DNA from: Saccoglossus kowalevskii
Lineage: Eukaryota; Hemichordata; Enteropneusta; Harrimaniidae
Length of the DNA stretch: 33,814 nucleotides
NCBI RefSeq assembly: GCF_000003605.2
Contig: NW_003116199.1
Location: 1 to 33,814 of the forward strand
Direction of reading: 5' to 3'
In this document: piece after piece, positions 1-33,814 of the stretch
Numbering within the stretch: position 1 is the first letter of the stretch
How the letters are laid out: each line of letters starts with the position of its first letter
Made by a program: the position numbers and the translations under genes
The notes under the pieces: model-generated
The model's input: the letters and a program-made list of their open reading frames with translations, nothing else
What the model was told of the DNA's origin: nothing
Database searches by the model: none

Positions 1-47
1 ATACTTGTGTTTTCCCGATAAATAGGAAACGCTTTCAAATGATAACG

Positions 48-119
48 TCCCATATGTTCTAGTGGTTAGGATTTGGCGCTTTCACCGCCATGGCCTGGGT
101 TCAATTCCCGGTGTGGGAA
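48..119 (+). tRNA. tRNA-Glu(UUC) copy 1, variant
   Basis: It has G10T, A44T and C49T (a T-G wobble in the T-stem). All other stems pair, so it may fold, with a weakened D-stem. Confidence 0.6.
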
Positions 120-332
120 CACCTGTTTTAGATTCTTGGTCAGTTGAACATCGCAGCTTGTATAAAACGCTCATAGACAATTTAATTAAAATATATAAAT
201 TGGCCTCTCGTATTTGTTGCCTTATTACAAGAGAATATATAATACACGACGTGCAGTTCATGTCACAAACATCTGATTGTATGCCATACTTGTGTTTTCC
301 CGATAAATAGGAAACGCCTTCATACGACATCG

Positions 333-404
333 TCCCATATGGTCTAGTGGTTAGGCTTTGGCGTTTTCACCGCCAAGGCCCGGGTTCATTTTCCGGTGTG
401 GTAA
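333..404 (+). pseudogene. tRNA-Glu-like copy 2, degenerate
   Basis: It has A24C, C32T, A57T, C60T and G70T. The B box is broken (GGTTCATTTTC) and the acceptor has a C2-T70 mismatch. Confidence 0.75.
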
Positions 405-617
405 CACCTGGTTTAGATTCCTGGTCAGTTGAACATCGCAGCTTGTATAAAATGCTCATAGACAATTTAATTAAAAGATATAAATTGGCGTCTCCTATTT
501 GTTGCCTTATTACAAGAGAATATATAATACACGACGTGCAGTTCATGTCACAAACATCTGATTGTATGCCATACTTGTGTTTTCCCGATAAATAGGAAAC
601 GCCTTCATACGACAACG

Positions 618-689
618 TCCCATATGCTATAGTGGTTAGGATTTGGCGTTTTCACCGCCAAGGCCCGGGTTCAATTCCCGGTGTGGGAA
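618..689 (+). tRNA. tRNA-Glu(UUC) copy 3, D-stem variant
   Basis: It has G10C, C12A and C32T. Two of the three D-stem pairs are lost, while the anticodon and T arms are intact. Confidence 0.45.
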
Positions 690-902
690 TACCTGTTTTA
701 GATTCCTGGTCAGTTGAACATCGCAGTTTGTACAAAATTCTCAAAGACAATTTAAATAAAAGATATAAATTGGTCTCTCGTATTTGTTGCCTTATTACCA
801 GAGAATATATAATACACGACGTGCAGTTCATGTCACAAACATCCGATTGTATGCCATACTTGTGTTTTCCCGATAAATAGGAAACGCTTTCAAATGATAA
901 CG

Positions 903-974
903 TCCCATATGTTCTAGTGGTTAGGTATTGGCGCTTTCACCGCCAAGGCCTGGGTTCAATTCCCGGTGTGGGAA
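903..974 (+). tRNA. tRNA-Glu(UUC) copy 4, variant
   Basis: It has G10T, A24T, T25A and C49T. The T10-A25 pair forms, but T11-T24 does not. Confidence 0.45.
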
Positions 975-1187
975 CACCTGTTTTAGATTCCTGGTCAGTT
1001 GAACATCGCAGCTTGTATAAAACGCTCATAGACAATTTAATTAAACTATATAAATTGGCCTCTCGTATTTGTTGCCTTATTACAAGAGAATATATAATAC
1101 ACGACGTGCAGTTCATGTCACAAACATCTGATTGTATGCCATACTTGTGTTTTCCCGATAAATAGGAAACGCCTTCATACGACAACG

Positions 1188-1259
1188 TCCCATATGCTCT
1201 AGTGGTTAGGATTTGGCGTTTTCACCGCCAAGGCCCGGGTTCAATTCCCGGTGTGGTAA
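1188..1259 (+). pseudogene. tRNA-Glu-like copy 5
   Basis: It has G10C, C32T and G70T, giving a C2-T70 acceptor mismatch. It is the counterpart of copy 16 in the 3127-bp offset duplication. Confidence 0.6.
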
Positions 1260-1472
1260 CACCTGTTTTATATTCCTGGTCAGTTGAACATCGCAGCTTG
1301 TATAAAATTCTCAAAGACAATTTAAATAAAAGATATAAATTGGCCTCTCGTATTTGTTGCCTTATTACAAGAGAATATATAATACACGACGTGCAGTTCA
1401 TGTCACAAGCATCCGATTGTATGCCATACTTGTGTTTTCCCGATAAATAGGAAACGCCTTCATACGACAACG

Positions 1473-1543
1473 TCCCATATGTCCAGTGGTTAGGATTTGG
1501 CGCTTTCACCGCCAAGGCCCGGGTTCAATTCCCGGTGTGGGAA
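1473..1543 (+). tRNA. tRNA-Glu(UUC) copy 6, del10
   Basis: This 71-nt copy has del10 and T13C. The anticodon, T and acceptor arms match the consensus. Confidence 0.45.
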
Positions 1544-1756
1544 CACCTGTTTTAGATTCCTGGTCAGTTGAACATCGCAGCTTGTATAAAATGAACATAG
1601 ACAATTTAATTAAAAGATTTAAATTGGCCTCTTGTATTTGTTGCCTTATTACAAGAGAATATATAATACACGACGTGCAGTTCATGTCACAAGTATCCGA
1701 TTATATGCCTTACTTGTGTTTTCCCGATAAATAGGAAACGCCTTCATACGACAACG

Positions 1757-1827
1757 TCCCATATGTCTAGTGGTTAGGATTTGGCGCTTTCACCGCCAAG
1801 GCCCGGGTTCAATTCCCGGTGTGGGAA
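1757..1827 (+). tRNA. tRNA-Glu(UUC) copy 7, del10 only
   Basis: The only change is del10, which shortens the 8-10 region and shifts the A box. Confidence 0.5.
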
Positions 1828-2040
1828 CACCTGTTTTAGATTCCTGGACAGTTGAACATCGCAGCTTGTATAAAATTCTCAAAGACAATTTAAATAAAAG
1901 ATATAAATTGGCCTCTCGTATTTTTTGCCTTATTACAAGAGAATATATAATACACGACGTGCAGTTCATGTCACAAGTATTGTATTATATGCCTTACTTG
2001 TGTTTTCCTGATAAATAGGAAACGCCTTAATACGACAACG

Positions 2041-2111
2041 TCCCATATGTCTAGTGGTTAGGATTTGGCGCTTTCACCGCCAAGGCCCGTGTTCAATTCC
2101 CGGTGTGGGAA
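2041..2111 (+). pseudogene. tRNA-Glu-like copy 8, del10
   Basis: It has del10 and G51T, which breaks the T-stem and the first base of the B box. Confidence 0.6.
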
Positions 2112-2324
2112 CACCCGTTTTAGATTCCTGGTCAGTTGAACATCGCAGCTTGTATAAAATGCTCATGAACAATTTAATTAAAAGATATAAATTGGCGTCT
2201 CGTATTTGTTGCCTTATTACAAGAGAATATATAATTCACGACGTGCAGTTCATGTCACAAGTATCCTATTAAATGCCTTACTTGTGTTTTCCCGATAAAT
2301 AGGAAACGCCTTCAAATGTCAACG

Positions 2325-2396
2325 TCCCATATGCTCTAGTGGTTAGGATTTGGCGCTTTCACCGCCAAGGCTCGGGTTCAATTCCCGGTGTGGGAA
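2325..2396 (+). tRNA. tRNA-Glu(UUC) copy 9, variant
   Basis: It has G10C and C48T (a wobble with G64). The rest is consensus. Confidence 0.5.
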
Positions 2397-2540
2397 CACC
2401 CGTTTTAGATTCCTGGTCAGTTGAACATCGCAGCTTGTACAAAATTCTCAAAGACAATTTAAATAAAAGATATAAATTGGCCTCTCGTATTTGTTGCCTT
2501 ATTACAAGAGAATATATAATACACGACGTGCAGTTCATGT

Positions 2541-2571
2541 CACAAGTATCCTATTATATGCCTTACTTGTG
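2541..2571. repeat. Spacer hairpin followed by TTTT (representative)
   Basis: CACAAGTA and TACTTGTG form a perfect 8-bp stem with a 15-nt loop, followed at once by TTTTCCC. This is the version found in spacers ending GTATCCTATTATATGCCT. The alternative version (CACAAGCATCCGATTG) has one C-A mismatch in the stem. It could act as a fail-safe Pol III stop for readthrough transcripts, which is inference. Confidence 0.55.
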
Positions 2572-2609
2572 TTTTCCCGATAAATAGGATACGCCTTCAT
2601 ACGACAACG

Positions 2610-2681
2610 TCCCATATGGTCTAGTGGTTAGGATTTGGCGCTTTCACCGCCAAGGCCTCGGTTCAATTCCCGGATTGGGAA
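2610..2681 (+). pseudogene. tRNA-Glu-like copy 10, acceptor and T-stem broken
   Basis: It has C49T, G50C, T65A and G66T (CCCGGATTGGGAA). Two acceptor pairs and a T-stem pair fail. The same haplotype recurs in copies 22 and 27. Confidence 0.75.
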
Positions 2682-2894
2682 CATCTGTTTTAGCTTCCTG
2701 GTCAGTTGAACATCGCAGCTTGTACAAAATTCTCAAAGACAATTTAAATAAAAGATATAAATTGGCCTCTCGTATTTGTTGCCTTATTACAAGAGAATAT
2801 ATAATACACGACGTGCAGTTCATGTCACAAGTATTCTGTTATATGCCTTACTTGTGTTTTCCCGATAAATAGGAAACGCCTTTACAAGACCACG

Positions 2895-2966
2895 TCCCAT
2901 ATGGTCTATCAGTTAGGATTTGGCGCTTTCACCGCCAAGGCCCGGGTTCAATTCCTGGTGTGGGAA
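2895..2966 (+). pseudogene. tRNA-Glu-like copy 11, D-loop TCAG class
   Basis: D-loop bases 15-17 are TCA instead of GTG, which removes part of the conserved GG pair and damages the A box. It also has C61T. It is preceded by the private leader CCTTTACAAGACCACG. Confidence 0.7.
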
Positions 2967-3174
2967 CACCTGTTTTAGGTTCCTGGTCAGTTGAACATCG
3001 CAGCTTGTACAAAATTCTGAAAGACAATTTAAATAAAAGATATAAATTGGCCTCTCGTATTTGTTGCCTTATTACAAGAGAATATATAATACATGACGTG
3101 CAGTTCATGTCACAAGTATTCTGTTATATGCCTTACTTGTGTTTTCCCGATAAATAGGAAACGCCTTTATCGCG

Positions 3175-3246
3175 TCCCATATGGTCTAGTGGTTAGGATT
3201 TGGCGCTTTCACCGCCAAGGCCCGGGTTCAATTCCCGGTGTGGGAA
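3175..3246 (+). tRNA. tRNA-Glu-TTC: tRNA-Glu(UUC) copy 12, exact consensus
   Basis: It matches the reference copy at all 72 positions. Its spacer carries the markers of copy 3 (CAGTTTGTAC, TTGGTCTC, ATTACCAG), so tRNA and spacer come from different parents. The leader before it lacks 5 bp (AAGAC), making the preceding unit 280 bp. Confidence 0.93.
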
Positions 3247-3459
3247 CACCTGTTTTAGATTCCTGGTCAGTTGAACATCGCAGTTTGTACAAAATTCTCA
3301 AAGACAATTTAAATAAAAGATATAAATTGGTCTCTCGTATTTGTTGCCTTATTACCAGAGAATATATAATACACGACGTGCAGTTCATGTCACAAACATC
3401 CGATTGTATGCCATACTTGTGTTTTCCCGATAAATAGGAAACGCATTCAAATGATAACG

Positions 3460-3531
3460 TCCCATATGTTCTAGTGGTTAGGTATTGGCGCTTTCACCGC
3501 CAAGGCCTGGGTTCAATTCCCGGTGTGGGAA
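3460..3531 (+). tRNA. tRNA-Glu(UUC) copy 13, variant
   Basis: It has G10T, A24T, T25A and C49T, identical to copy 4 (2557 bp upstream). Confidence 0.45.
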
Positions 3532-3744
3532 CACCTGTTTTAGATTCCTGGTCAGTTGAACATCGCAGCTTGTACAAAATTCTCAAAGACAATTTAAATA
3601 AAAGATATAAATTGGCCTCTCGTATTTGTTGCCTTATTACAAGAGAATATATAATACACGACGTGCAGTTCATGTCACAAGTATTCTGTTATATGCCTTA
3701 CTTGTGTTTTCCCGATAAATAGGAAACGCCTTTATAAGACCACG

Positions 3745-3816
3745 TCCCATATGGTCTATCAGTTAGGATTTGGCGCTTTCACCGCCAAGGCCCGGGTTCA
3801 ATTCCTGGTGTGGGAA
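3745..3816 (+). pseudogene. tRNA-Glu-like copy 14, D-loop TCAG class
   Basis: It has the same tRNA haplotype as copy 11 (G15T, T16C, G17A, C61T), with the leader CCTTTATAAGACCACG. Confidence 0.7.
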
Positions 3817-4036
3817 CACCTGTTTTAGGTTCCTGGTCAGTTGAACATCGCAGCTTGTACAAAATTCTGAAAGACAATTTAAATAAAAGATATAAATTGG
3901 CCTCTCGTATTTGTTGCCTTATTACAAGAGAATATATAATACATGACGTGCAGTTCATGTCACAAGTATTCTGTTATATGCCTTACTTGTGTTTTCCCGA
4001 TAAATAGGAAACGCCTTTATAAGACCGCGTCCCATA

Positions 4037-4047
4037 TGGTCTAGTGG
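4037..4047 (+). promoter_or_regulatory. A box of reference copy
   Basis: TGGTCTAGTGG covers tRNA positions 8-18 and fits the eukaryotic A-box pattern TRGYNNARNNG. It is the site read by TFIIIC. In the del10 copies this box loses a base, and in copies 11, 14, 23 and 28 its 3' half is changed to TATCAG. Confidence 0.85.
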
Positions 4048-4079
4048 TTAGGATTTGGCGCTTTCACCGCCAAGGCCCG

Positions 4080-4090
4080 GGTTCAATTCC
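4080..4090 (+). promoter_or_regulatory. B box of reference copy
   Basis: GGTTCAATTCC covers positions 51-61 and matches GGTTCRANYCC. It is the strongest TFIIIC contact. It stays intact in most units, including many whose tRNA fold is broken, so TFIIIC binding could persist on pseudogene copies. Confidence 0.85.
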
Positions 4091-4107
4091 CGGTGTGGGA
4101 ACACCTG

Positions 4108-4111
4108 TTTT
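4108..4111 (+). terminator. Pol III T-run terminator of reference copy
   Basis: TTTT begins 7 nt after the discriminator base, in the context CACCTGTTTTAG. The same run follows almost every full-length copy, so the predicted trailer is only about 6 nt plus U residues. Copy 46 is an exception where the run is TTAT. Confidence 0.85.
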
Positions 4112-4159
4112 AGATTCCTGGTCAGTTGAACATCGCAGCTTGTATAAAACGCTCATAGA

Positions 4160-4184
4160 CAATTTAATTAAACTATATAAATTG
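4160..4184. repeat. AT-rich inverted repeat in spacer (representative)
   Basis: CAATTTA and TAAATTG form a perfect 7-bp inverted repeat around an 11-bp AT-rich centre. The arms are kept in nearly all units while the centre varies (ATTAAAAGATA, AATAAAAGATA, ATTAAAATATA). Confidence 0.6.
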
Positions 4185-4314
4185 GCCTCTCGTATTTGTT
4201 GCCTTATTACAAGAGAATATATAATACACGACGTGCAGTTCATGTCACAAACATCTGATTGTATGCCATACTTGTGTTTTCCCGATAAATAGGAAACGCC
4301 TTCATACGACAACG

Positions 4315-4386
4315 TCCCATATGCTCTAGTGGTTAGGATTTGGCGTTTTCACCGCCAAGGCCCGGGTTCAATTCCCGGTGTGGTAA
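4315..4386 (+). pseudogene. tRNA-Glu-like copy 16
   Basis: It has G10C, C32T and G70T, as in copy 5. Confidence 0.6.
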
Positions 4387-4599
4387 CACCTGTTTTATAT
4401 TCCTGGTCAGTTGAACATCGCAGCTTGTATAAAATTATCAAAGACAATTTAAATAAAAGATTTAAATTGGCCTCTCGTATTTGTTGCCTTATTACAAGAG
4501 AATATATAATACACGACGTGCAGTTCATGTCACAAGCATCCGATTGTATGCCATACTTGTGTTTTCCCGATAAATAGGAAACGCCTTCATACGACAACG

Positions 4600-4670
4600 T
4601 CCCATATGTCCAGTGGTTAGGATTTGGCGCTTTCACCGCCAAGGCCCGGGTTCAATTCCCGGTGTGGGAA
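4600..4670 (+). tRNA. tRNA-Glu(UUC) copy 17, del10
   Basis: It has del10 and T13C, as in copy 6. The unit is duplicated next door as copy 18. Confidence 0.45.
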
Positions 4671-4883
4671 CACCTGTTTTAGATTCCTGGTCAGGTGAAC
4701 ATCGCAGCTTGTATAAAATGAACATAGACAATTTAATTAAAAGATTTAAATTGGCCTCTTGTATTTGTTGCCTTATTACAAGAGAATATATAATACACGA
4801 CGTGCAGTTCATGTCACAAACATCTGATTGTATGCCATACTTGTGTTTTCCCGATAAATAGGAAACGCCTTCATACGACAACG

Positions 4884-4954
4884 TCCCATATGTCCAGTGG
4901 TTAGGATTTGGCGCTTTCACCGCCAAGGCCCGGGTTCAATTCCCGGTGTGGGAA
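4884..4954 (+). tRNA. tRNA-Glu(UUC) copy 18, del10
   Basis: It has del10 and T13C. It is an extra unit relative to the 975-3158 block and moves the offset from 3127 to 3411 bp. Confidence 0.45.
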
Positions 4955-5167
4955 CACCTGTTTTAGATTCCTGGTCAGGTGAACATCGCAGCTTGTATAA
5001 AATGAACATAGACAATTTAATTAAAAGATTTAAATTGGCCTCTCGTATTTGTTGCCTTATTACAAGAGAATATATAATACACGACGTGCAGTTCATGTCA
5101 CAAGTATCCTATTATATGCCTTACTTGTGTTTTCCCGATAAATAGGAAACGCCTTCATACGACAACG

Positions 5168-5238
5168 TCCCATATGTCTAGTGGTTAGGATTTGGCGCTT
5201 TCACCGCCAAGGCCCGGGTTCAATTCCCGGTGTGGGAA
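5168..5238 (+). tRNA. tRNA-Glu(UUC) copy 19, del10 only
   Basis: It has del10 and no other change. It is the counterpart of copy 7. Confidence 0.5.
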
Positions 5239-5451
5239 CACCTGTTTTAGATTCCTGGACAGTTGAACATCGCAGCTTGTATAAAATTCTCAAAGACAAT
5301 TTAAATAAAAGATATAAATTGGCCTCTCGTATTTTTTGCCTTATTACAAGAGAATATATAATACACGACGTGCAGTTCATGTCACAAGTATCGTATTATA
5401 TGCCTTACTTGTGTTTTCCTGATAAATAGGAAACGCCTTAATACGACAACG

Positions 5452-5522
5452 TCCCATATGTCTAGTGGTTAGGATTTGGCGCTTTCACCGCCAAGGCCCG
5501 TGTTCAATTCCCGGTGTGGGAA
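5452..5522 (+). pseudogene. tRNA-Glu-like copy 20, del10
   Basis: It has del10 and G51T, as in copy 8. Confidence 0.6.
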
Positions 5523-5735
5523 CACCCGTTTTAGATTCCTGGTCAGTTGAACATCGCAGCTTGTATAAAATGCTCATAGACAATTTAATTAAAAGATATA
5601 AATTGGCGTCTCGTATTTGTTGCCTTATTACAAGAGAATATATAATTCACGACGTGCAGTTCATGTCACAAGTATCCTATTAAATGCCTTACTTGTGTTT
5701 TCCCGATAAATAGGAAACGCCTTCAAATGTCAACG

Positions 5736-5807
5736 TCCCATATGCTCTAGTGGTTAGGATTTGGCGCTTTCACCGCCAAGGCTCGGGTTCAATTCCCGGT
5801 GTGGGAA
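5736..5807 (+). tRNA. tRNA-Glu(UUC) copy 21, variant
   Basis: It has G10C and C48T. It is followed by the rare trailer GACCCG, shared only with copy 26. Confidence 0.5.
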
Positions 5808-6020
5808 GACCCGTTTTAGATTCCTGGTCAGTTGAACATCGCAGCTTGTACAAAATTCTCAAAGACAATTTAAATAAAAGATATAAATTGGCCTCTCGTA
5901 TTTGTTGCCTTATTACAAGAGAATATATAATACACGACGTGCAGTTCATGTCACAAGTATCCTATTATATGCCTTACTTGTGTTTTCCCGATAAATAGGA
6001 TACGCCTTCATACGACAACG

Positions 6021-6092
6021 TCCCATATGGTCTAGTGGTTAGGATTTGGCGCTTTCACCGCCAATGCCTCGGTTCAATTCCCGGATTGGGAA
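6021..6092 (+). pseudogene. tRNA-Glu-like copy 22
   Basis: It has the copy 10 haplotype plus G45T. Confidence 0.75.
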
Positions 6093-6305
6093 CATCTGTT
6101 TTAGCTTCCTGGTCAGTTGAACATCGCAGCTTGTACAAAATTCTCAAAGACAATTTAAATAAAAGATATAAATTGGCCTCTCGTATTTGTTGCCTTATTA
6201 CAAGAGAATATATAATACACGACGTGCAGTTCATGTCACAAGTATTCTGTTATATGCCTTACTTGTGTTTTCCCGATAAATAGGAAACGCCTTTATAAGA
6301 CCACG

Positions 6306-6377
6306 TCCCATATGGTCTATCAGTTAGGATTTGGCGCTTTCACCGCCAAGGCCCGGGTTCAATTCCTGGTGTGGGAA
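6306..6377 (+). pseudogene. tRNA-Glu-like copy 23, D-loop TCAG class
   Basis: It has the same haplotype as copy 11. Confidence 0.7.
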
Positions 6378-6590
6378 CACCTGTTTTAGGTTCCTGGTCA
6401 GTTGAACATCGCAGCTTGTACAAAATTCTGAAAGACAATTTAAATAAAAGATATAAATTGGCCTCTCGTATTTGTTGCCTTATTACAAGAGAATATATAA
6501 TACATGACGTGCAGTTCATGTCACAAGTATTCTGTTATATGCCTTACTTGTGTTTTCCCGATAAATAGGAAACGCCTTTATAAGACCGCG

Positions 6591-6662
6591 TCCCATATGG
6601 TCTAGTGGTTAGGATTTGGCGCTTTCACCGCCAAGGCCTGGGTTCAATTCCCGGTGTGGGAA
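6591..6662 (+). tRNA. tRNA-Glu(UUC) copy 24, near-consensus
   Basis: The only change is C49T, which keeps pairing as T-G. It is likely foldable and has both promoter boxes intact. Confidence 0.85.
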
Positions 6663-6875
6663 CACCTGTTTTAGATTCCTGGTCAGTTGAACATCGCAGC
6701 TTGTATAAAATTCTCAAAGACAATTTAATTAAAAGATATAAATTGGCCTCTCGTATTTGTTGCCTTATTACAAAAGAATATATAATACACGACGTGCAAT
6801 TCATGTCACAAGCATCCGATTGTATGCCATACTTGTGTTTTCCCGATAAATAGGAAACGCTTTCAAATGATAACG

Positions 6876-6947
6876 TCCCATATGTTCTAGTGGTTAGGAT
6901 TTGGCGCTTTCACCGCCAAGGCCTGGGTTCAATTCCCGGTGTGGGAA
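6876..6947 (+). tRNA. tRNA-Glu(UUC) copy 25, variant
   Basis: It has G10T and C49T. Its spacer has CTGATTAC and AAATATGAA, shared with copies 36 and 42. Confidence 0.6.
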
Positions 6948-7160
6948 CACCTGTTTTAGATTCCTGGTCAGTTGAACATCGCAGCTTGTATAAAACGCTC
7001 ATAAACAATTTAATTAAACTATATAAATTGACCTCTCGTATTTGTTGCCTGATTACAAGAGAATATATAATACACGACGTGCAGTTCATGTCACAAGCAT
7101 CCGATTGTATGCCATACTTGTGTTTTCCCGATAAATATGAAACGCCTTCATACGACAACG

Positions 7161-7231
7161 TCCCATATGTCTTGTGGTTAGGATTTGGCGCTTTCACCGC
7201 CAAGGCCCGGGTTCAATTCCCGGTGTGGGAA
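7161..7231 (+). tRNA. tRNA-Glu(UUC) copy 26, del10, chimeric unit
   Basis: It has del10 and A14T. Its 5' part is of the TCTTGTGG class, yet it is followed by the GACCCG trailer of copy 21, so an exchange point lies inside the tRNA. Confidence 0.4.
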
Positions 7232-7444
7232 GACCCGTTTTAGATTCCTGGTCAGTTGAACATCGCAGCTTGTACAAAATTCTCAAAGACAATTTAAATA
7301 AAAGATATAAATTGGCCTCTCGTATTTGTTGCCTTATTACAAGAGAATATATAATACACGACGTGCAGTACATGTCACAAGTATCCTATTATATGCCTTA
7401 CTTGTGTTTTCCCGATAAATAGGATACGCCTTCATACGACAACG

Positions 7445-7516
7445 TCCCATATGGTCTAGTGGTTAGGATTTGGCGCTTTCACCGCCAAGGCCTCGGTTCA
7501 ATTCCCGGATTGGGAA
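7445..7516 (+). pseudogene. tRNA-Glu-like copy 27
   Basis: It has the same lesions as copy 10 (C49T, G50C, T65A, G66T). Confidence 0.75.
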
Positions 7517-7729
7517 CATCTGTTTTAGCTTCCTGGTCAGTTGAACATCGCAGCTTGTACAAAATTCTCAAAGACAATTTAAATAAAAGATATAAATTGG
7601 CCTCTCGTATTTGTTACCTTATTACAAGAGAATATATAATACACGACGTGCAGTTCATGTCACAAGTATTCTGTTATATGCCTTACTTGTGTTTTCCCGA
7701 TAAATAGGAAACGCCTTTATAAGACCACG

Positions 7730-7801
7730 TCCCATATGGTCTATCAGTTAGGATTTGGCGCTTTCACCGCCAAGGCCCGGGTTCAATTCCTGGTGTGGGA
7801 A
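7730..7801 (+). pseudogene. tRNA-Glu-like copy 28, D-loop TCAG class
   Basis: It has the same haplotype as copy 11, 1424 bp after copy 23. Confidence 0.7.
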
Positions 7802-8014
7802 CACCTGTTTTAGGTTCCTGGTCAGTTGAACATCGCAGCTTGTACAAAATTCTGAAAGACAATTTAAATAAAAGATATAAATTGGCCTCTCGTATTTGTT
7901 GCCTTATTACAAGAGAATATATAATACATGACATGCAGTTCATGTCACAAGTATTCTGTTATATGCCTTACTTGTGTTTTCCCGATAAATAGGAAACGCC
8001 TTTATAAGACCGCG

Positions 8015-13707: not shown

Positions 13708-13779
13708 TCCCATATGGTCTAGTGGTTTGGATTTGGCGCTTTTACCGCCATGGCCCGGGTTCAATTCCCGGTGTGGGAA
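13708..13779 (+). tRNA. tRNA-like copy 49 with TTT (Lys-type) anticodon
   Basis: C36T changes the anticodon at 13741-13743 to TTT in a loop reading CTTTTAC. It also has A21T and A44T. All stems, both promoter boxes and the terminator are intact. If expressed it would read AAA/AAG codons, while the body keeps tRNA-Glu identity. It may equally be a silent decayed copy. Confidence 0.55.
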
Positions 13780-15702: not shown

Positions 15703-15812
15703 TCCCATAAGGTCTAGTGGTTAGGATTTTGTGCAGTTCATGTCACAAGCATCCGATTGTATGCCGTACTTGTGTTTTCCCGATAAATAGGAAACGCCTT
15801 CATACGACAACG
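15703..15812 (+). repeat. Short unit S1 (110 bp, 5' tRNA fragment)
   Basis: It keeps tRNA positions 1-27 (with T8A), then jumps to TGTGCAGTTCATG of the spacer, which deletes about 175 bp. The A box is partly kept. There is no anticodon arm, B box or T-arm. Confidence 0.85.
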
Positions 15813-25669: not shown

Positions 25670-25882
25670 TACCTGTTTTAGATTCCTGGTCAGTTGCACA
25701 TCGCAGCTTGTATAAAATTCTCAAAGACAATTTAATTAAAAGATATAAATTGGCCACTCGTATTTGTTGCCTTATTACAAGAGAATATATAATACACGAC
25801 TTGCATTTCATGTCACAAGCATCCGATTGTATGCCATACTTGTGTTTTCCCGATAAATAGGAAACGCCTTCAAATGTCAACG

Positions 25883-25954
25883 TCCCATATGGTTTAGTGG
25901 TTAGGATTTGTCGCTTTCACCGCCAAGGCTCGGGTTCAATTCCCGGTGTGAGAA
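25883..25954 (+). pseudogene. tRNA-Glu-like, GTCGC class
   Basis: It has C12T, G29T, C48T and G69A. Confidence 0.65.
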
Positions 25955-26167
25955 CACCCGTTTTAGATTCCTGGTCAATTGAACATCGCAGCTTGTACAA
26001 AATTCTCAAAGACAATTTAAATAAAAGATATAAATTGGCCTCTCGTATTTGTTGCCTTATTACATGAGAATATATAATACACGACGTGCAGTTCATGTCA
26101 CAAGCATCCGATTGTATGCCATACTCGTGTTTTCCCGATAAATAGGAAACGCTTTCAAATGTCAACG

Positions 26168-26277
26168 TCCCATATGGTCTAGTGGTTAGGATTTTGTGCA
26201 GTTCATGTCACAAGCATCCGATTGTATGCCGTACTTGTGTTTTCCCGATAAATAGGAAACGCCTTCATACGACAACG
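26168..26277 (+). repeat. Short unit S8 (110 bp)
   Basis: It keeps consensus tRNA positions 1-27 and then TGTGCAG. Confidence 0.88.
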
Positions 26278-26349
26278 TCCCATATGGTCTAGTGGTTAGG
26301 ATTTGGCGCCTTCACCGCCAAGGCCCGGGTTAAATTCCCGGTGTGGGAA
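26278..26349 (+). pseudogene. tRNA-Glu-like, loop-damaged
   Basis: It has T33C (invariant U33 lost) and C55A, which destroys the TTC core of the T-loop and the B box. The stems are intact. Confidence 0.6.
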
Positions 26350-26562
26350 CACCTGTTTTAGATTCCTGGTCAGGTGTACATCGCAGCTAGTATAAAATGC
26401 TCATAGACAATTTAATAAAAATATATAAATTGCCCTCTCGTATTTGTTGCCTTATTACAAGAGAATATATAATACACGACGTGCAGTTCATGTCACAAGC
26501 ATCCGATTGTATGCCATACTTGTGTCTTCCCGATAAATAGGAAACGCCTTCATACGACAACG

Positions 26563-26633
26563 TCCCATATGTCTTGTGGTTAGGATTTGGCGCTTTCACC
26601 GCCAAGGCCCGGGTTCAATTCCAGGTGTGGGAA
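26563..26633 (+). pseudogene. tRNA-Glu-like, del10 plus C62A class
   Basis: It has del10, A14T and C62A. Confidence 0.5.
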
Positions 26634-26846
26634 CACCTGTTTTAGATTCCTGGACAGTTGAACATCGCAGCTTGTATAAAATGCTCATAGACAATTTAAT
26701 TAAAAGATATAAATTGGCCTCTCGTATTTGTTGCCTTATTACAAGAGAATATATAATACACGACGTGCAGTTCATGTCACAAGTATCTTATTATATGCCT
26801 TACTTGTGTTTTCCCGATAAATAGGAAACGCCTTCATACGACAACG

Positions 26847-26918
26847 TTCCATATGGTCTAGTGGTTAGGATTTGGCGCTTTCACCGCCAAGGCCCGGGTT
26901 CAATTCCCGGTGTTGGAA
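26847..26918 (+). pseudogene. tRNA-Glu-like, acceptor variant
   Basis: It has C2T and G68T. Confidence 0.5.
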
Positions 26919-27131
26919 TACCTGTTTTAGATTCCTGGTCAGTTGCACATCGCAGCTTGTATAAAATTCTCAAAGACAATTTAATTAAAAGATATAAATT
27001 GGCCACTCGTATTTGTTGCCTTATTACAAGAGAATATATAATACACGACGTGCAGTTCATGTCACAAGTATCCTATTATATGCCTTACTTGTGTTTTCCC
27101 GATAAATAGGAAACGCCTTCATACGACAACG

Positions 27132-27203
27132 TCCCATATGGTCTAGTGGTTAGGATTTGGCGCTTTCACCGCCAAGGCCCGGGTTCAATTCCCGGTGTGG
27201 GAA
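27132..27203 (+). tRNA. tRNA-Glu-TTC: tRNA-Glu(UUC), exact consensus
   Basis: It matches all 72 reference positions and is the counterpart of 30087 at 2955 bp. Confidence 0.95.
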
Positions 27204-27416
27204 TACATGTTTTAGATTCCTGGTCAGTTGAACATCGCAGCTTGAATAAAATTCTCAAAGACAATTTAATTAAAAGATATAAATTGGCCTCTCGTATTTG
27301 TTGCCTTATTACAAGAAAATATATAATACACGACGTGCAGTTCATGTCACAAGTATCCTATTATATGCCTTACTTGTGTTTTCCCGATAAATAGGAAACG
27401 CCTTCATACGTCAACG

Positions 27417-27487
27417 TCCCATATGTCTAGTGGTTAGGATTTGGCGCTTTCACCGCCAAGGCCCGGGTTCAATTCCCGGTGTGGGAA
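27417..27487 (+). tRNA. tRNA-Glu(UUC), del10 only
   Basis: The only change is del10. Confidence 0.5.
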
Positions 27488-27700
27488 TACCTGTTTTAGA
27501 TTCCTGGTCAGTTGCACATCGCAGCTTGTATAAAATTCTCAAAGACAATTTAATTAAAAGATATAAATTGGCCACTCATATTTGTTGCCTTATTACAAGA
27601 GAATATATAATACACGACTTGCATTTCATGTCACAAGCATCCGATTGTATGCCATACTTGTGTTTTCCCGATAAATAGGAAACGCCTTCAAATGTCAACG

Positions 27701-27772
27701 TCCCATATGGTTTAGTGGTTAGGATTTGTCGCTTTCACCGCCAAGGCACGGGTTCAATTCCCGGTGTGAGAA
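27701..27772 (+). pseudogene. tRNA-Glu-like, GTCGC class variant
   Basis: It has C12T, G29T, C48A and G69A. Its spacer is of the GAACTCTGG type, unlike other members of the class. Confidence 0.65.
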
Positions 27773-27985
27773 CAACCGTTTTAGAACTCTGGTCAGTTGA
27801 ACATCGCAGCTTGTATAAAATGCTCATAGGCAATTTAATTAAAATATATAAATTGGCCTGTCGTATTTGTTTCCTTATTTCAAGAGAATATATAATACAC
27901 GACGTGCAGTTCATGTCACAAGCATCCGATTGTATGCCATACTTGTGTTTTCCCGATAAATAGGAAACGCCTTCATACGACAACT

Positions 27986-28057
27986 TCCCATATGGTCTAG
28001 TGGTTAGGATTTGGCGCTTTCACCGCCAAGGCCCGGGTTCAATTCCCGGCGTGGGAA
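27986..28057 (+). tRNA. tRNA-Glu(UUC), one change
   Basis: The only change is T65C, which opens the last acceptor pair (A7-C65). The leader has CAACTT for CAACGT. Confidence 0.7.
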
Positions 28058-28270
28058 CACCTGTTTTAGATTCCTGGTCAGGTGTACATCGCAGCTAGTA
28101 TAAAATGCTCATAGACAATTTAATAAAAATATATAAATTGCCCTCTCGTATTTGTTGCCTTATTACAAGAGAATATATAATACACGACGTGCAGTTCATG
28201 TCACAAGCATCCGATTGTATGCCATACTTGTGTTTTCCCGATAAATAGGCAACGCTTTCAAATGTCAACG

Positions 28271-28380
28271 TCCCATATGGTCTAGTGGTTAGGATTTTGT
28301 GCAGTTCATGTCACAAGCATCCGATTGTATGCCGTACTTGTGTTTTCCCGATAAATAGAAAACGCCTTCATACGACAACT
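28271..28380 (+). repeat. Short unit S9 (110 bp)
   Basis: It keeps consensus tRNA positions 1-27 and then TGTGCAG. The leader to the next tRNA is CAACTT. Confidence 0.88.
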
Positions 28381-28452
28381 TCCCATATGGTCTAGTGGTT
28401 AGGATTTGGCGCTTTCACCGCCAAGGCCCGGGTTCAATTCCCGGCGTGGGAA
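28381..28452 (+). tRNA. tRNA-Glu(UUC), one change
   Basis: The only change is T65C, as at 27986, with the same CAACTT leader. This suggests a local duplication around S9. Confidence 0.7.
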
Positions 28453-28665
28453 CACCTGTTTTAGATTCCTGGTCAGGTGTACATCGCAGCTAGTATAAAA
28501 TGCTCATAGACAATTTAATAAAAATATATAAATTGCCCTCTCGTATTTGTTGCCTTATTACAAGAGAATATATAATACACGACGTGCAGTTCATGTCACA
28601 AGCATCCGATTGTATGCCATACTTGTGTTTTCCCGATAAATAGGAAACGCCTTCATACGACAACT

Positions 28666-28736
28666 TCCCATATGTCTTGTGGTTAGGATTTGGCGCTTTC
28701 ACCGCCAAGGCCCGGGATCAATTCCAGGTGTGGGAA
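28666..28736 (+). pseudogene. tRNA-Glu-like, del10
   Basis: It has del10, A14T, T53A and C62A. The B box is damaged. Confidence 0.6.
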
Positions 28737-28949
28737 CACCTGTTTTAGATTCCTGGACAGTTGAACATCGCAGCTTGTATAAAATGCTCATAGACAATTT
28801 AATTAAAAGATATAAATTGGCCTCTCGTATTTGTTGCCTTATTACAAGAGAATATATAATACACGACGTGCTGTTCATGTCACAAGTATCCTATTATATG
28901 CCTTACTTGTGTTTTCCCGATAAATAGGAAACGCCTTCATACGACAACG

Positions 28950-29021
28950 TCCCATATGGTCTAGTGGTTAGGATTTGGCGCTTTCACCGCCAAGGCCCGG
29001 GTTCAATTCCCGGTGTGGGAA
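28950..29021 (+). tRNA. tRNA-Glu-TTC: tRNA-Glu(UUC), exact consensus
   Basis: It matches all 72 reference positions. Confidence 0.95.
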
Positions 29022-29234
29022 TACCTGTTTTAGATTCCTGGTCAGTTGCACATCGCAGCTTGTATAAAATTCTCAAAGACAATTCAATTAAAAGATATAA
29101 ATTGGCCACTCATATTTGTTGCCTTATTACAAGAGAATATATAATACACGACTTGCATTTCATGTCACAAGCATCCGATTGTATGCCATACTTGTGTTTT
29201 CCCGATAAATAGGAAACGCCTTCAAATGTCAACG

Positions 29235-29306
29235 TCCCATATGGTTTAGTGGTTAGGATTTGTCGCTTTCACCGCCAAGGCTCGGGTTCAATTCCCGGTG
29301 TGAGAA
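29235..29306 (+). pseudogene. tRNA-Glu-like, GTCGC class
   Basis: It has C12T, G29T, C48T and G69A. Confidence 0.65.
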
Positions 29307-29519
29307 CATCCGTTTTAGATTCCTGGTCAATTGAACATCGCAGCTTGTACAAAATTCTCAAAGACAATTTAAATAAAAGATATAAATTGGCCTCTCGTAT
29401 TTGTTGCCTTATTACAAGAGAATATATAATACACGACGTGCAGTTCATGTCACAAGTATCCTATTATATGCCTTACTTGTGTTTTCCCGATAAATAGGAA
29501 ACGCCTTCATACGACAACG

Positions 29520-29590
29520 TCCCATATGGTCTAGTGGTTAGGATTTGGCGCTTCACCGCCAAGGCCCGGGTTCAATTCCCGGTGTGGGAA
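29520..29590 (+). pseudogene. tRNA-Glu-like, 6-nt anticodon loop
   Basis: One T is deleted from the anticodon loop, which reads CTTCAC at 29551-29556. Everything else is consensus. Either U33 or the frame of the anticodon is lost. Its counterpart at 32080 is intact, so the deletion is recent or was corrected there. Confidence 0.7.
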
Positions 29591-29802
29591 TACCTGTTTT
29601 AGATTCCTGGTCAGTTGAACATCGCAGCTTGAATAAAATTCTCATAGACATTTTATTAAAAGATATAAATTGGCCTCTCGTATTTGTTGCCTTATTACAA
29701 GAGAATATATAATACACGACGTGCAGTTCATGTCACAAGTATCCTATTATATGCTTTACTTGTGTTTTCCCGATAAATAGGAAACGCCTTCATACGTCAA
29801 CG

Positions 29803-29873
29803 TCCCATATGTCTAGTGGTTAGGATTTGGCGCTTTCACCGCCAAGGCCCGGGTTCAATTCCAGGTGTGGGAA
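29803..29873 (+). pseudogene. tRNA-Glu-like, del10 plus C62A class
   Basis: It has del10 and C62A. Confidence 0.5.
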
Positions 29874-30086
29874 CACCTGTTTTAGATTCCTGGACAGTTG
29901 AACATCGCAGCTTGTATAAAATTCTCAAAGACAATTTAATTAAAAGATATAAATTGGCCACTCGTATTTGTTGCCTTATTACAAGAGAATATATAATACA
30001 CGACGTGCAGTTCATGTCACAAGTATCCTATTATATGCCTTACTTGTGTTTTCCCGATAAATAGGAAACGCCTTCATACGACAACG

Positions 30087-30158
30087 TCCCATATGGTCTA
30101 GTGGTTAGGATTTGGCGCTTTCACCGCCAAGGCCCGGGTTCAATTCCCGGTGTGGGAA
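30087..30158 (+). tRNA. tRNA-Glu-TTC: tRNA-Glu(UUC), exact consensus
   Basis: It matches all 72 reference positions. Confidence 0.95.
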
Positions 30159-30371
30159 TACATGTTTTAGATTCCTGGTCAGTTGAACATCGCAGCTTGA
30201 ATAAAATTCTCAAAGACAATTTAATTAAAAGATATAAATTGGCCTCTCGTATTTGTTGCCTTATTACAAGAAAATATATAATACACGACGTGCAGTTCAT
30301 GTCACAAGTATCCTATTATATGCCTTACTTGTGTTTTCCCGATAAATAGGAAACGCCTTCATACGTCAACG

Positions 30372-30442
30372 TCCCATATGTCTAGTGGTTAGGATTTGGC
30401 GCTTTCACCGCCAAGGCCCGGGTTCAATTCCCGGTGTGGGAA
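30372..30442 (+). tRNA. tRNA-Glu(UUC), del10 only
   Basis: The only change is del10. Confidence 0.5.
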
Positions 30443-30655
30443 TACCTGTTTTAGATTCCTGGTCAGTTGCACATCGCAGCTTGTATAAAATTCTCAAAGA
30501 CAATTTAATTAAAAGATATAAATTGGCCACTCGTATTTGTTGCCTTATTACAAGAGAATATATAATACACGACTTGCATTTCATGTCACAAGCATCCGAT
30601 TGTATGCCATACTTGTGTTTTCCCGATAAATAGGAAACGCCTTCAAATGTCAACG

Positions 30656-30727
30656 TCCCATATGGTTTAGTGGTTAGGATTTGTCGCTTTCACCGCCAAG
30701 GCTCGGGTTCAATTCCCGGTGTGAGAA
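30656..30727 (+). pseudogene. tRNA-Glu-like, GTCGC class
   Basis: It has C12T, G29T, C48T and G69A. Confidence 0.65.
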
Positions 30728-30940
30728 CACCCGTTTTAGATTCCTGGTCAATTGAAGATCGCAGCTTGTACAAAATTCTCAAAGACAATTTAAATAAAAG
30801 ATATAAATTGGCCTGTCGTATTTGTTGCCTTATTACAAGAGAATATATAATACACGACGTGCAGTTCATGTCACAAGTATCCTATTATATGCCTTACTTG
30901 TGTTTTCCCGATAAATAGGAAACGCCTTCATACGACAACG

Positions 30941-31012
30941 TCCCATACGGTCTAGTGGTTAGGATTTGGCGCTTTCACCGCCAAGGCCCGGGTTCAATTC
31001 CCGGTGTGGGAA
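30941..31012 (+). tRNA. tRNA-Glu(UUC), T8C
   Basis: The only change is T8C. Base 8 is almost always U in tRNAs and is also the first base of the A box. Confidence 0.55.
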
Positions 31013-31225
31013 TACCTGTTTTAGATTCCTGGTCAGTTGAACATCGCAGCTTGAATAAAATTCTCAAAGACAATTTAATTAAAAGATATAAATTGGCCTC
31101 TCGTATTTGTTGCCTTATTACAAGAAAATATATAATACACGACGTGCAGTTCATGTCACAAGTATCCTATTATATGCCTTACTTGTGTTTTCCCGATAAA
31201 TAGGAAACGCCTTCATACGTCAACG

Positions 31226-31296
31226 TCCCATATGTCTAGTGGTTAGGATTTGGCGCTTTCACCGCCAAGGCCCGGGTTCAATTCCAGGTGTGGGAA
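31226..31296 (+). pseudogene. tRNA-Glu-like, del10 plus C62A class
   Basis: It has del10 and C62A. Its spacer has AAATATGAA instead of AAATAGGAA. Confidence 0.5.
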
Positions 31297-31509
31297 CACC
31301 TGTTTTAGATTCCTGGACAGTTGAACATCGCAGCTTGTATAAAATGCTCATAGACAATTTAATTAAAAGATATAAATTGGCCTCTCGTATTTGTTGCCTT
31401 ATTACAAGAGAATATATAATACACGACGTGCAGTTCATGTCACAAGTATTCTATTATATGCCTTACTTGTGTTTTTCCGATAAATATGAAACGCCTTCAT
31501 ACGACAATG

Positions 31510-31581
31510 TCCCATATGGTCTAGTGGTTAGGATTTGGCGCTTTCACCGCCAAGGCCCGGGTTCAATTCCCGGTGTGGGAA
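31510..31581 (+). tRNA. tRNA-Glu-TTC: tRNA-Glu(UUC), exact consensus
   Basis: It matches all 72 reference positions. The leader is GACAATG rather than GACAACG. Confidence 0.95.
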
Positions 31582-31794
31582 TACCTGTTTTAGATTCCTG
31601 GTCAGTTGCACATCGCAGCTTGTATAAAATTCTCAAAGACAATTTAATTAAAAGATATAAATTGGCCACTCATATTTGTTGCCTTATTACAAGAGAATAT
31701 ATAATACACGACTTGCATTTCATGTCACAAGCATCCGATTGTATGCCATACTTGTGTTTTCCCGATAAATAGGAAACGCCTTCAAATGTCAACG

Positions 31795-31866
31795 TCCCAT
31801 ATGGTTTAGTGGTTAGGATTTGTCGCTTTCACCGCCAAGGCTCGGGTTCAATTCCCGGTGTGAGAA
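31795..31866 (+). pseudogene. tRNA-Glu-like, GTCGC class
   Basis: It has C12T, G29T, C48T and G69A. Confidence 0.65.
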
Positions 31867-32079
31867 CACCCGTTTTAGATTCCTGGTCAATTGAACATCG
31901 CAGCATGTACAAAATTCTCAAAGACAATTTAAATAAAATATATAAATTGGCCTCTCGTATTTGTTGCCTTATTACAAGAGAATATATAATACACGACGTG
32001 CAGTTCATGTCACAAGTATCCTATTATATGCCTTACTTGTGTTTTCCCGATAAATAGGAAACGCCTTCATACGACAACG

Positions 32080-32151
32080 TCCCATATGGTCTAGTGGTTA
32101 GGATTTGGCGCTTTCACCGCCAAGGCCCGGGTTCAATTCCCGGTGTGGGAA
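32080..32151 (+). tRNA. tRNA-Glu-TTC: tRNA-Glu(UUC), exact consensus
   Basis: It matches all 72 reference positions. Confidence 0.95.
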
Positions 32152-32364
32152 TACCTGTTTTAGATTCCTGGTCAGTTGAACATCGCAGCTTGAATAAAAT
32201 TCTCAAAGACAATTTAATTAAAAGATATAAATTGGCCTCTCGTATTTGTTGCCTTATTACAAGAGAATATATAATACACGACGTGCAGTTCATGTCACAA
32301 GTATCCTATTATATGCCTTACTTGTGTTTTCCCGATAAATAGGAAACGCCTTCATACGTCAACG

Positions 32365-32435
32365 TCCCATATGTCTAGTGGTTAGGATTTGGCGCTTTCA
32401 CCGCCAAGGCCCGGGTTCAATTCCAGGTGTGGGAA
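32365..32435 (+). pseudogene. tRNA-Glu-like, del10 plus C62A class
   Basis: It has del10 and C62A. Confidence 0.5.
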
Positions 32436-32648
32436 CACCTGTTTTAGATTCCTGGACAGTTGAACATCGCAGCTTGTATAAAATGCTCATAGACAATTTA
32501 ATTAAAAGATATAAATTGGCCTCTCGTATTTGTTGCCTTATTACAAGAGAATATATAATACACGACGTGCAGTTCATGTCACAAGTATCCTACTATATGC
32601 CTTACTTGTGTTTTCCCGATAAATAGGAAACGCCTTCATTCGACAACG

Positions 32649-32720
32649 TCCCATATGGTCTAGTGGTTAGGATTTGGCGCTTTCACCGCCAAGGCCCGGG
32701 TTCAATTCCCTGTGTGGGAA
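32649..32720 (+). tRNA. tRNA-Glu(UUC), one change
   Basis: The only change is G63T (mismatch with C49 in the T-stem). Confidence 0.65.
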
Positions 32721-32933
32721 TACCTGTTTTAGATTCCTGGTCAGTTGAATATCGCAGCTTGTATAAAATTCTCAAAGACAATTTAATTAAAAGATATAAA
32801 TTGGCCTCTCGTATTTGTTGCCTCATTACAAGAGAATATATAATACACGACTTGCAGTTCATGTCACAAGCATCCGATTGTATGCCATACTAGTGTCTTC
32901 CCGACAAATAGGAAACGCCTTCATACGTCAACG

Positions 32934-33005
32934 TCCCATATGGTCTAGTGGTTAGGATTTGGCGCTTTCACCGCCAAGGCCTGGGTTCAATTCCCGATGT
33001 GAGAA
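32934..33005 (+). pseudogene. tRNA-Glu-like, degenerate
   Basis: It has C49T, G64A and G69A, so both the T-stem and the acceptor are weakened. Confidence 0.6.
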
Positions 33006-33199
33006 CACCCGTTTTAGTACTCTGGTCAGTTGAACATCGCAGCTTGTATAAAATGCTCATAGGCAATTTAATTAAAATATATAAATTGGCCTGTCGTATT
33101 TGTTGCCTTATTTCAAGAGAATATATAATACACGACGTGCAGTTCATGTCACAAGCATCCGATTGTATGCCATACTTATGTTTTCCCGATAAATAGGAA

Positions 33200-33247
33200 T
33201 AAGTATCCTATCATATGCCTTACTTGTATTTTCCCGATAAATAGGAA
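33200..33247 (+). repeat. Extra 48-bp partial spacer duplication
   Basis: The spacer end (AAGTATCC to ATAGGAA, with the hairpin arms) appears a second time with no tRNA between, making this unit 333 bp. The inserted piece is of the TCCTATCATATGCC type otherwise seen near 13647, so it was copied from another unit. Confidence 0.8.
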
Positions 33248-33266
33248 ACGCCTTCATACGACAACG

Positions 33267-33338
33267 TCCCATATGGTCTAGTGGTTTGGATTTGGCGCTT
33301 TCACCGCCAAGGCCCGGGTTCAATTCCTGGTGTGGGAA
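33267..33338 (+). tRNA. tRNA-Glu(UUC), variant
   Basis: It has A21T and C61T (G51-T61 wobble). The stems are otherwise intact. Confidence 0.6.
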
Positions 33339-33551
33339 TTCCTGTTTTAGATTCCTGGTCAGTTGAACATCGCAGCTTGTATACAATTCTCAAAGACAAT
33401 TTAATTAAAAGATATAAATTGGCCTCTCGTATTTGTTGCCTTATTACAAGAGAATATATAATACACGACGTGCAGTTCATGTCACAAGCATCCGATTGTA
33501 TGCCATACTCGTGTTTTCCCGATAAATAGGAAACGCTTTCAAATGTCAACG

Positions 33552-33661
33552 TCCCATATGGTCTAGTGGTTAGGATTTTGTGCAGTTCATGTCACAAGCA
33601 TCCGATTGTATGCCGTACTTGTGTTTTCCCGATAAATAGGAAACGCCTTCATACCACAACG
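33552..33661 (+). repeat. Short unit S10 (110 bp)
   Basis: It keeps consensus tRNA positions 1-27 and then TGTGCAG. Confidence 0.88.
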
Positions 33662-33733
33662 TCCCATATGGTCTAGTGGTTAGGATTTGGCGCTTTCACC
33701 GCCAAGGCCCGGGTTCAATTCCCGGTGTGGGAA
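33662..33733 (+). tRNA. tRNA-Glu-TTC: tRNA-Glu(UUC), exact consensus, last copy
   Basis: It matches all 72 reference positions and has a TTTT terminator. Its spacer is truncated by the window edge. Confidence 0.95.
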
Positions 33734-33814
33734 CACCTGTTTTAGATTCCTGGTCAGGTGTACATCGCAGCTTGTATAGAGAATGCTCATAGACAATTTA
33801 ATAAAAATATATAA

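What the first reader, a model, noticed from the sequence alone, without database searches (positions are those of the whole stretch)
1..33814. A 117-copy single-isoacceptor tRNA-Glu(UUC) tandem array with no other genes
Every ~285 bp the sequence carries a tRNA-Glu-like gene in one orientation, with A box, B box and a TTTT stop, over the full 33.8 kb and past both edges. Tandem tRNA arrays are known (for example Entamoeba tRNA arrays and the Xenopus tRNA repeat), but this density of one isoacceptor inside a satellite-like monomer is striking. It could supply tRNA-Glu, feed tRNA fragments, or act as a TFIIIC-bound chromatin element.
Basis: partly seen in the sequence, partly recalled or inferred. 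Interest (0 to 1): 0.85.

Follow-up and report, generated by a model that had tools for sequence, protein, structure and literature searches.

The report
Decaying tRNA-Glu gene satellite array
An animal DNA contig consists of a glutamate-tRNA gene copied head to tail about 115 times; most copies are imperfect and intact glutamate-tRNA genes exist elsewhere, so it looks like a repeat of a kind already reported rather than a new tRNA factory.

Summary
The array is real. The window is one whole contig (33,814 bp) of a 572-Mb assembly, apparently animal: tRNA-Glu monomers of about 285 bp in one orientation, 115 full-length units plus 10 truncated (not 117). Of the 115, 114 read UUC and one UUU; 12 are perfect, 32 carry an indel, 43 have every stem paired.

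"Single isoacceptor" holds on this contig and nearly so on its closest relatives; other contigs with the same monomer mix CUC and UUC. At least eight contigs (about 287 kb, partly read) belong to the family.

The same tRNA body occurs off the arrays as four intact solitary CUC genes. A different UUC gene lies at five other places, so the array is not the only UUC source. It looks like an amplified CUC-type gene whose wobble base changed. tRNA and spacer vary about equally, two-sided stem changes are rare, and truncated units spread too.

Best reading: a tRNA-gene satellite homogenised by unequal exchange, with a minority of intact, probably transcribable copies. Comparable arrays are reported in Hydractinia, Phytophthora and Entamoeba, and a tRNA-Glu-derived tandem family in a newt. 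New member of a known kind; expression untested.

The parts
1..33814 (+). Whole contig C983: head-to-tail array of tRNA-Glu(UUC) monomers, consensus 285 bp (72-nt tRNA plus 213-bp spacer), 115 full and 10 truncated units
3175..3246 (+). Example of a perfect tRNA-Glu(UUC) copy (one of 12: also 4030, 16208, 17636, 21447, 24744, 27132, 28950, 30087, 31510, 32080, 33662)
   Evidence: 63.3 bits; exact 72-nt match
1188..1259 (+). Example of an imperfect copy (50.3 bits), used to locate the flanking elements
1157..1164 (+). GATAAATA at -31 to -24 from tRNA +1, inside the imperfect inverted repeat TTTTCC...GGAAA (within 1150-1170); present in the consensus of all four contigs compared; possible upstream TATA-like element (inferred)
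1266..1269 (+). TTTT 3' of the tRNA (Pol III terminator-like); TTTT within 25 nt in 113 of 115 copies
13708..13779 (+). Copy whose anticodon changed to UUU (called tRNA-Lys by ARAGORN), 59.0 bits
18123..18232 (+). Example of a 110-bp truncated unit (spacer from GTGCAGTTC to tRNA nt 27). Ten such units have their tRNA remnant at 15703, 16098, 18205, 22309, 23275, 23385, 24065, 26168, 28271, 33552, each joined to TGTGCAGTTC

Best explanation
This is a tRNA-gene satellite. One tRNA-Glu gene with the body of the genome's solitary tRNA-Glu(CUC) genes was amplified head to tail with about 213 bp of flanking DNA. Unequal crossing-over and conversion spread and homogenised the unit into at least eight array contigs in two subfamilies: A, about 285 bp and nearly all UUC, which includes the window; and B, mostly 291-298 bp, with CUC and UUC interspersed. 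A wobble C-to-T change turned CUC units into UUC units. Individual copies decay at about the rate of the spacer. A minority stay intact with internal promoter and terminator and are probably transcribed by Pol III, adding redundant tRNA-Glu rather than essential supply. Shown: the array, two subfamilies, anticodon mixture, decay pattern, off-array genes. Inferred: direction of the wobble change, unequal exchange, transcription.
For: Array and single orientation. The 113 aligned monomers are 93% identical on average. Mean diversity 0.058 in the tRNA versus 0.069 in the spacer, p=0.32; 46 of 285 circular 72-nt windows are more conserved than the tRNA, and gaps are commoner in the tRNA (0.0039 versus 0.0004 per site). 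Over 479 copies and 21 stem pairs, 510 cells are broken by a one-sided change, 288 keep a standard pair through a one-sided change, and 9 are changed on both sides and still paired. Ten truncated units carry one shared junction. The longest run of 98%-identical monomers repeated inside the window is six. Mixed CUC/UUC sister arrays. Within B the wobble base follows the spacer haplotype: 88.7% agreement with the nearest spacer on another contig versus a shuffled mean of 54.0%. Solitary genes of the same body are 4 of 4 perfect, versus 9 of the 45 fetched array copies with the same 21-nt CUC core, p=0.0034. UUC genes of another body off the arrays.
Against: The consensus tRNA of subfamily A and of B-UUC is the same in all 72 positions while their spacers differ by 9 substitutions and 11 gap columns, so constraint on the array consensus is possible; I ran no test of this contrast. 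TTTT is kept in 113 of 115 window copies, though several spacer stretches are as conserved. 57 perfect UUC copies exist genome-wide, enough to matter if transcribed. No expression data were available.
Confidence: 0.68

Rival explanations
1. Functional multigene array: the array is kept because it supplies large amounts of tRNA-Glu, for example in oocytes or another tissue, with concerted evolution keeping enough intact copies.
For: 57 perfect UUC copies genome-wide, all on contigs read as arrays or, for C3505, presumed to be one; tRNA consensus identical in A and B-UUC; TTTT in 113 of 115; GATAAATA upstream in the consensus of both subfamilies; within B, UUC copies keep the 13 conserved positions checked more often than CUC copies (89 of 105 versus 70 of 213).
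Against: Only 12 of 115 window copies perfect; 32 with an indel. tRNA diversity does not differ from spacer. UUC genes of another body exist at 5 places. The cleaner B-UUC copies also have less diverged spacers (0.029 versus 0.046), so they may simply be younger.
Confidence: 0.2
2. Structural or chromatin array: TFIIIC/Pol III binding to many A/B boxes acts as boundary, clustering or centromere-like element, independent of tRNA product.
For: Regular spacing and a B-box match in 97 of 115 window copies; a human tRNA tandem repeat is proposed as a boundary element (abstract, PMC4041453).
Against: 125 of 213 CUC copies of subfamily B have changed A58, a conserved B-box letter. No occupancy data. 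No chromosome position is known.
Confidence: 0.08
3. SINE-derived satellite: the unit came from a tRNA-headed retroposon that became tandem.
For: SINE-derived satellites and a newt tRNA-Glu-derived tandem family are in print (passages of PMC10702118).
Against: The tRNA consensus is a full gene identical to solitary genes, followed by TTTT. The four solitary genes share the tRNA and at most 18 nt beyond it with the array unit. A LINE-derived tail was not looked for by homology, and the spacer was not scanned genome-wide.
Confidence: 0.04

Closest known systems
Hydractinia tRNA tandem arrays (PMC11067881, passages read)
   Same: Animal; evenly spaced arrays of tens or hundreds of near-identical tRNA copies with near-identical spacers; assembly rich in other tandem repeats.
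   Different: [quoted passage not shown] here only the tRNA-Glu family was established and the spacer is 213 bp. Species of this genome not determined.
Phytophthora infestans tRNA arrays (PMC9584435, passages read)
   Same: Single-tRNA arrays of hundreds of copies (271 tRNA-Cys, 513-nt unit); arrays with two anticodons of one amino acid (Gln CTG/TTG); variation among copies.
   Different: Oomycete; the Gln anticodons belong to dimeric or trimeric repeat units, here CUC and UUC units are irregularly interspersed variants of one monomer.
Entamoeba tRNA gene arrays (PMC2652664, start of abstract in the search listing only)
   Same: Tandem tRNA units forming long arrays.
   Different: Units with up to 5 tRNA genes and short tandem repeats between genes, holding almost all tRNA genes of the organism.
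Newt tRNA-Glu-derived tandem family (Nagahashi et al. 1991; title and a summary seen in PMC10702118; paper itself not read)
   Same: Tandem unit of a few hundred bp (about 360 nt) with a tRNA-related part.
   Different: Described as tRNA-like and derived by retroposition; here many copies are complete tRNA genes, 12 in the window perfect.

Membership tests
Tandem tRNA gene array | Many evenly spaced, same-orientation copies of a tRNA unit with conserved spacer | tested here: met
   115 full units, spacing 280-292 bp apart from ten 110-bp units and one 333-bp spacing, one strand
Tandem tRNA gene array | Copies able to make mature tRNA (intact sequence, internal promoter, terminator) | tested here: inconclusive
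   12 of 115 perfect, 43 fully paired, 97 with B-box match, 113 with TTTT; expression not testable
Satellite DNA (homogenised tandem repeat) | Unit decays without regard to the gene within it; partial units spread | tested here: met
   tRNA versus spacer diversity p=0.32; ten 110-bp truncated units with one junction
SINE-derived satellite | Dispersed retroposed copies of the whole unit with LINE-derived tail | tested here: inconclusive
   The four off-array same-body genes found share the tRNA and at most 18 nt more; no genome-wide scan with the spacer (the one DNA query, could not be scored)
Sole source of tRNA-Glu(UUC) | No other UUC gene in the genome | tested here: not met
   Five UUC genes of another body on four contigs, C2360, C2367 (two, 1.1 kb apart), C2917, C4447

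The most novel reading that the evidence does not exclude
The arrays are a standing pool in which a tRNA-Glu(CUC) body was converted to UUC by a wobble-base change and then nearly fixed over more than 150 kb of array (C983, C1449, C2654), giving the animal a second, array-only tRNA-Glu(UUC) isodecoder beside the off-array one, used where a large tRNA supply is needed (for example germ line). Isoacceptor replacement would then be seen happening through concerted evolution.
Probability: 0.15. Interest if true: 0.6.

Novelty: new member of a known kind. Interest (0 to 1): 0.33.

Why it matters
It shows a tRNA gene behaving as a satellite and an anticodon wobble change riding on array homogenisation, with the same tRNA body intact at solitary loci as an internal control. 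It also warns that raw tRNA counts from assemblies with such arrays can overstate the functional gene number.

Tried and rejected
Chance or prokaryotic origin: no match in phages or plasmids with one monomer or in IMG/VR with two exact patterns; the own genome is 572 Mb in 4,830 contigs and carries a thrombospondin C-terminal domain, from which I infer an animal.

Sole supplier of tRNA-Glu(UUC): searches showed no off-array UUC copy of this body, with a different T-arm letter, found five UUC genes of another body, so I dropped it. (One search missed them because they have G where I required a letter other than G.)

Selection on array UUC copies from the B-UUC versus B-CUC contrast: not kept, because the UUC copies also have less diverged spacers and the A58 change may be shared by descent.

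Higher-order repeat structure: only short runs. Duplicate contigs or haplotypes: among the nine stretches read from eight contigs, the longest stretch of 98% identity or more is 1,967 bp (C742/C1197), and 244 bp for the window (C1449), so those read are not copies of each other. One monomer folded as RNA is no more stable than shuffles (z 0.04).

Not resolved: species, tRNA arrays of other amino acids, total tRNA count, whether a CUC gene of another body exists, and the edges of the arrays. The family search RF00005, COX1 (34, 40, 50, 88), an 18S pattern (57, 63), a CUC pattern (89, 91, 92, 96, 98, 99, 101, 105, 108, 110, 112) and an initiator-Met pattern (102, 106, 113) did not complete.
Full report
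What is there. The window is the complete contig C983, 33,814 bp, of an assembly of 572,110,611 bp in 4,830 contigs. The whole contig is a head-to-tail array with a 285-bp consensus unit: a 72-nt tRNA-Glu(UUC) and a 213-bp spacer. ARAGORN reports 112 tRNA genes, all on the + strand (110 Glu ttc, 1 Lys ttt, 1 undetermined), and none in 20 Markov simulations or the reversed sequence. By blastn there are 125 tRNA-bearing units: 115 full or nearly full and 10 holding only nt 1-26/27. Rfam RF00005 reaches its gathering score 108 times.

Quality of the copies. Of 115 copies, 114 have anticodon UUC and 1 UUU; 12 are perfect, 43 have all stems in standard pairs, 32 carry an indel, 97 match my B-box pattern, and 113 have TTTT within 25 nt. 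The commonest indel is a missing base aligned at position 9, in 31 of 113 monomers. Diversity among the 113 aligned monomers does not differ between tRNA and spacer (means 0.058 and 0.069; medians 0.035 and 0.018; p=0.32); 46 of 285 circular 72-nt windows are more conserved than the tRNA; gaps are commoner in the tRNA. Over 479 copies from eight contigs and 21 stem pairs, 510 cells are broken by a one-sided change, 8 by a two-sided change, 288 keep a standard pair through a one-sided change (100 of them at the D-stem pair 10-25) and 9 through a two-sided change; cells count copies, not events. Ten 110-bp truncated units share one junction, which suggests that they spread as copies of one event. 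The longest run of monomers repeated at 98% or more is six. This is the pattern of unequal exchange with decay, not of copy-by-copy selection.

Relatives in the same genome. Exact 21-nt cores of the UUC form occur 453 times (about the first hundred places listed, the count whole) and of the CUC form 52 times (all listed). Array contigs: C742 (25,412 bp), C103 (14,945), C1197 (32,659), C1449 (10,071), C2654 (129,187), C3111 (29,528), C4635 (10,905) and the window, together about 287 kb (sum of contig lengths), plus C3505 (two perfect copies; not fetched). C742, C103 and C1197 were read whole; 10,000 bases each of C1449 and C4635, 19,528 of C3111, and only the last 2,187 of C2654, where exact hits run from 934 to 127,911. 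Those read are not duplicates of one another: the longest stretch of 98% identity or more is 1,967 bp. A degenerate remnant with three tRNA copies lies at C409:10752-11724.

Two subfamilies. By spacer, A (C983, C1449, end of C2654; about 285 bp) differs from B (C742, C1197, C103, C3111, C4635; mostly 291-298 bp) by 11 majority-base substitutions plus 6 gap columns. A is almost all UUC: 152 of 155 copies, with 2 CUC and 1 UUU; no exact CUC core lies on C2654. B is mixed: 213 CUC, 105 UUC, 5 UUU and 1 UUA of 324. In B the order of CUC and UUC along the array is irregular, but the wobble base follows the spacer haplotype (88.7% of 275 monomers agree with the nearest spacer on another contig; shuffled mean 54.0%, maximum 64.7%), so these are interspersed lineages rather than repeated mutation. 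Mean differences from reference are 0.038 (A-UUC), 0.026 (B-UUC) and 0.056 (B-CUC) per tRNA base, and 0.046, 0.029 and 0.046 per spacer base; the tRNA figure includes indels and is taken against the intact gene, the spacer figure against its own consensus. Of B-CUC copies, 125 of 213 have lost the conserved A58 of the T loop and B box (standard numbering recalled).

Genes outside the arrays. The same tRNA body occurs at four solitary places, C166 (two), C257 and C354, all CUC, all 72 of 72 perfect, with a T run downstream and at most 18 nt of further similarity to the array unit. Fetched array copies with the same 21-nt CUC core are perfect in 9 of 45 (Fisher p=0.0034; both sets were found by that core). 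No solitary UUC gene of this body was found with two patterns, one needing an exact 5' part and a preceding base other than G, one an exact 3' part and a following base other than C. The 57 perfect UUC copies all lie on array contigs, C3505 presumed. A different tRNA-Glu(UUC), 10 mismatches over 65 aligned bases, is present at five places on four contigs with identical tRNA sequence. The array body is therefore that of the solitary CUC genes, and the array UUC is best read as a wobble change of it (inferred). Whether a CUC gene of another body exists could not be tested (search unanswered).

How it most likely works. A tRNA gene with its flank became a satellite: exchange between misaligned units expands, contracts and homogenises the array, copies decay, and a minority remain intact. 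These carry the internal promoter, TTTT and an upstream GATAAATA at -31 to -24 found in the consensus of both subfamilies, and probably still recruit Pol III (inferred). The genome has other genes for both Glu anticodons, so loss of array function would probably be tolerated. The identity of the A and B-UUC tRNA consensus (0 differences of 72) and the 57 perfect copies keep the supply hypothesis alive.

What is known. [quoted passage not shown] Passages of a survey give Nematostella more than 17,000 tRNA genes and pseudogenes, 89% clustered (PMC2888827). Background passages of a paper on SINE-derived satellites list tRNA-related tandem families of amphibians, one of which, by its cited title, derives from tRNA-Glu in the newt (PMC10702118). 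Isoacceptor shifts, mostly at the first anticodon base and including Glu, are documented (passages, PMC3923123). This array is thus a new member of a known kind. My ten paper searches, judged by titles and abstract starts, listed no report of this particular array, but the species is unidentified.

Limits. No expression or chromatin data; species not named; the genome-wide tRNA scan did not complete by the service; no array edge other than the C409 remnant was seen.

Noticed in passing
G000 contigs C982 and C984 (L040, L041; first 3 kb read of each): Two other contigs, next in number to the window's, are tandem repeats of 56 bp and 52 bp throughout the part read, so short contigs of this assembly include other satellites.
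   Followed up: no
L042/L043 (C166:1370001-1390000): Near the two perfect solitary tRNA-Glu(CUC) genes lie degenerate tRNA-Glu-like fragments (85%, 82% and 82% identity), a small cluster unlike the arrays.
   Followed up: partly
L047 (C409:10752-11724): Short degenerate remnant of the array (three tRNA copies, about 90% identity) inside a 240-kb contig; the only place I saw where array DNA meets other sequence.
   Followed up: partly
window 13708-13779; C742, C1197: Rare anticodon variants in the arrays: UUU (Lys-like, 6 of 479 copies) and UUA (1 of 479).
   Followed up: no
L045:4963-5394 (C354): Open frame with a thrombospondin C-terminal domain about 0.5 kb downstream of a solitary tRNA-Glu(CUC) gene.
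   Followed up: no
window 1150-1170 and the same place in the monomer consensus: Imperfect inverted repeat TTTTCC-CGATAAATA-GGAAA just upstream of the tRNA, among the less variable spacer stretches.
   Followed up: partly
L058, L059 (C2367:27685-29000): The two UUC genes of the other body on C2367 lie 1.1 kb apart with similar flanks, a local duplication of the off-array gene.
   Followed up: no
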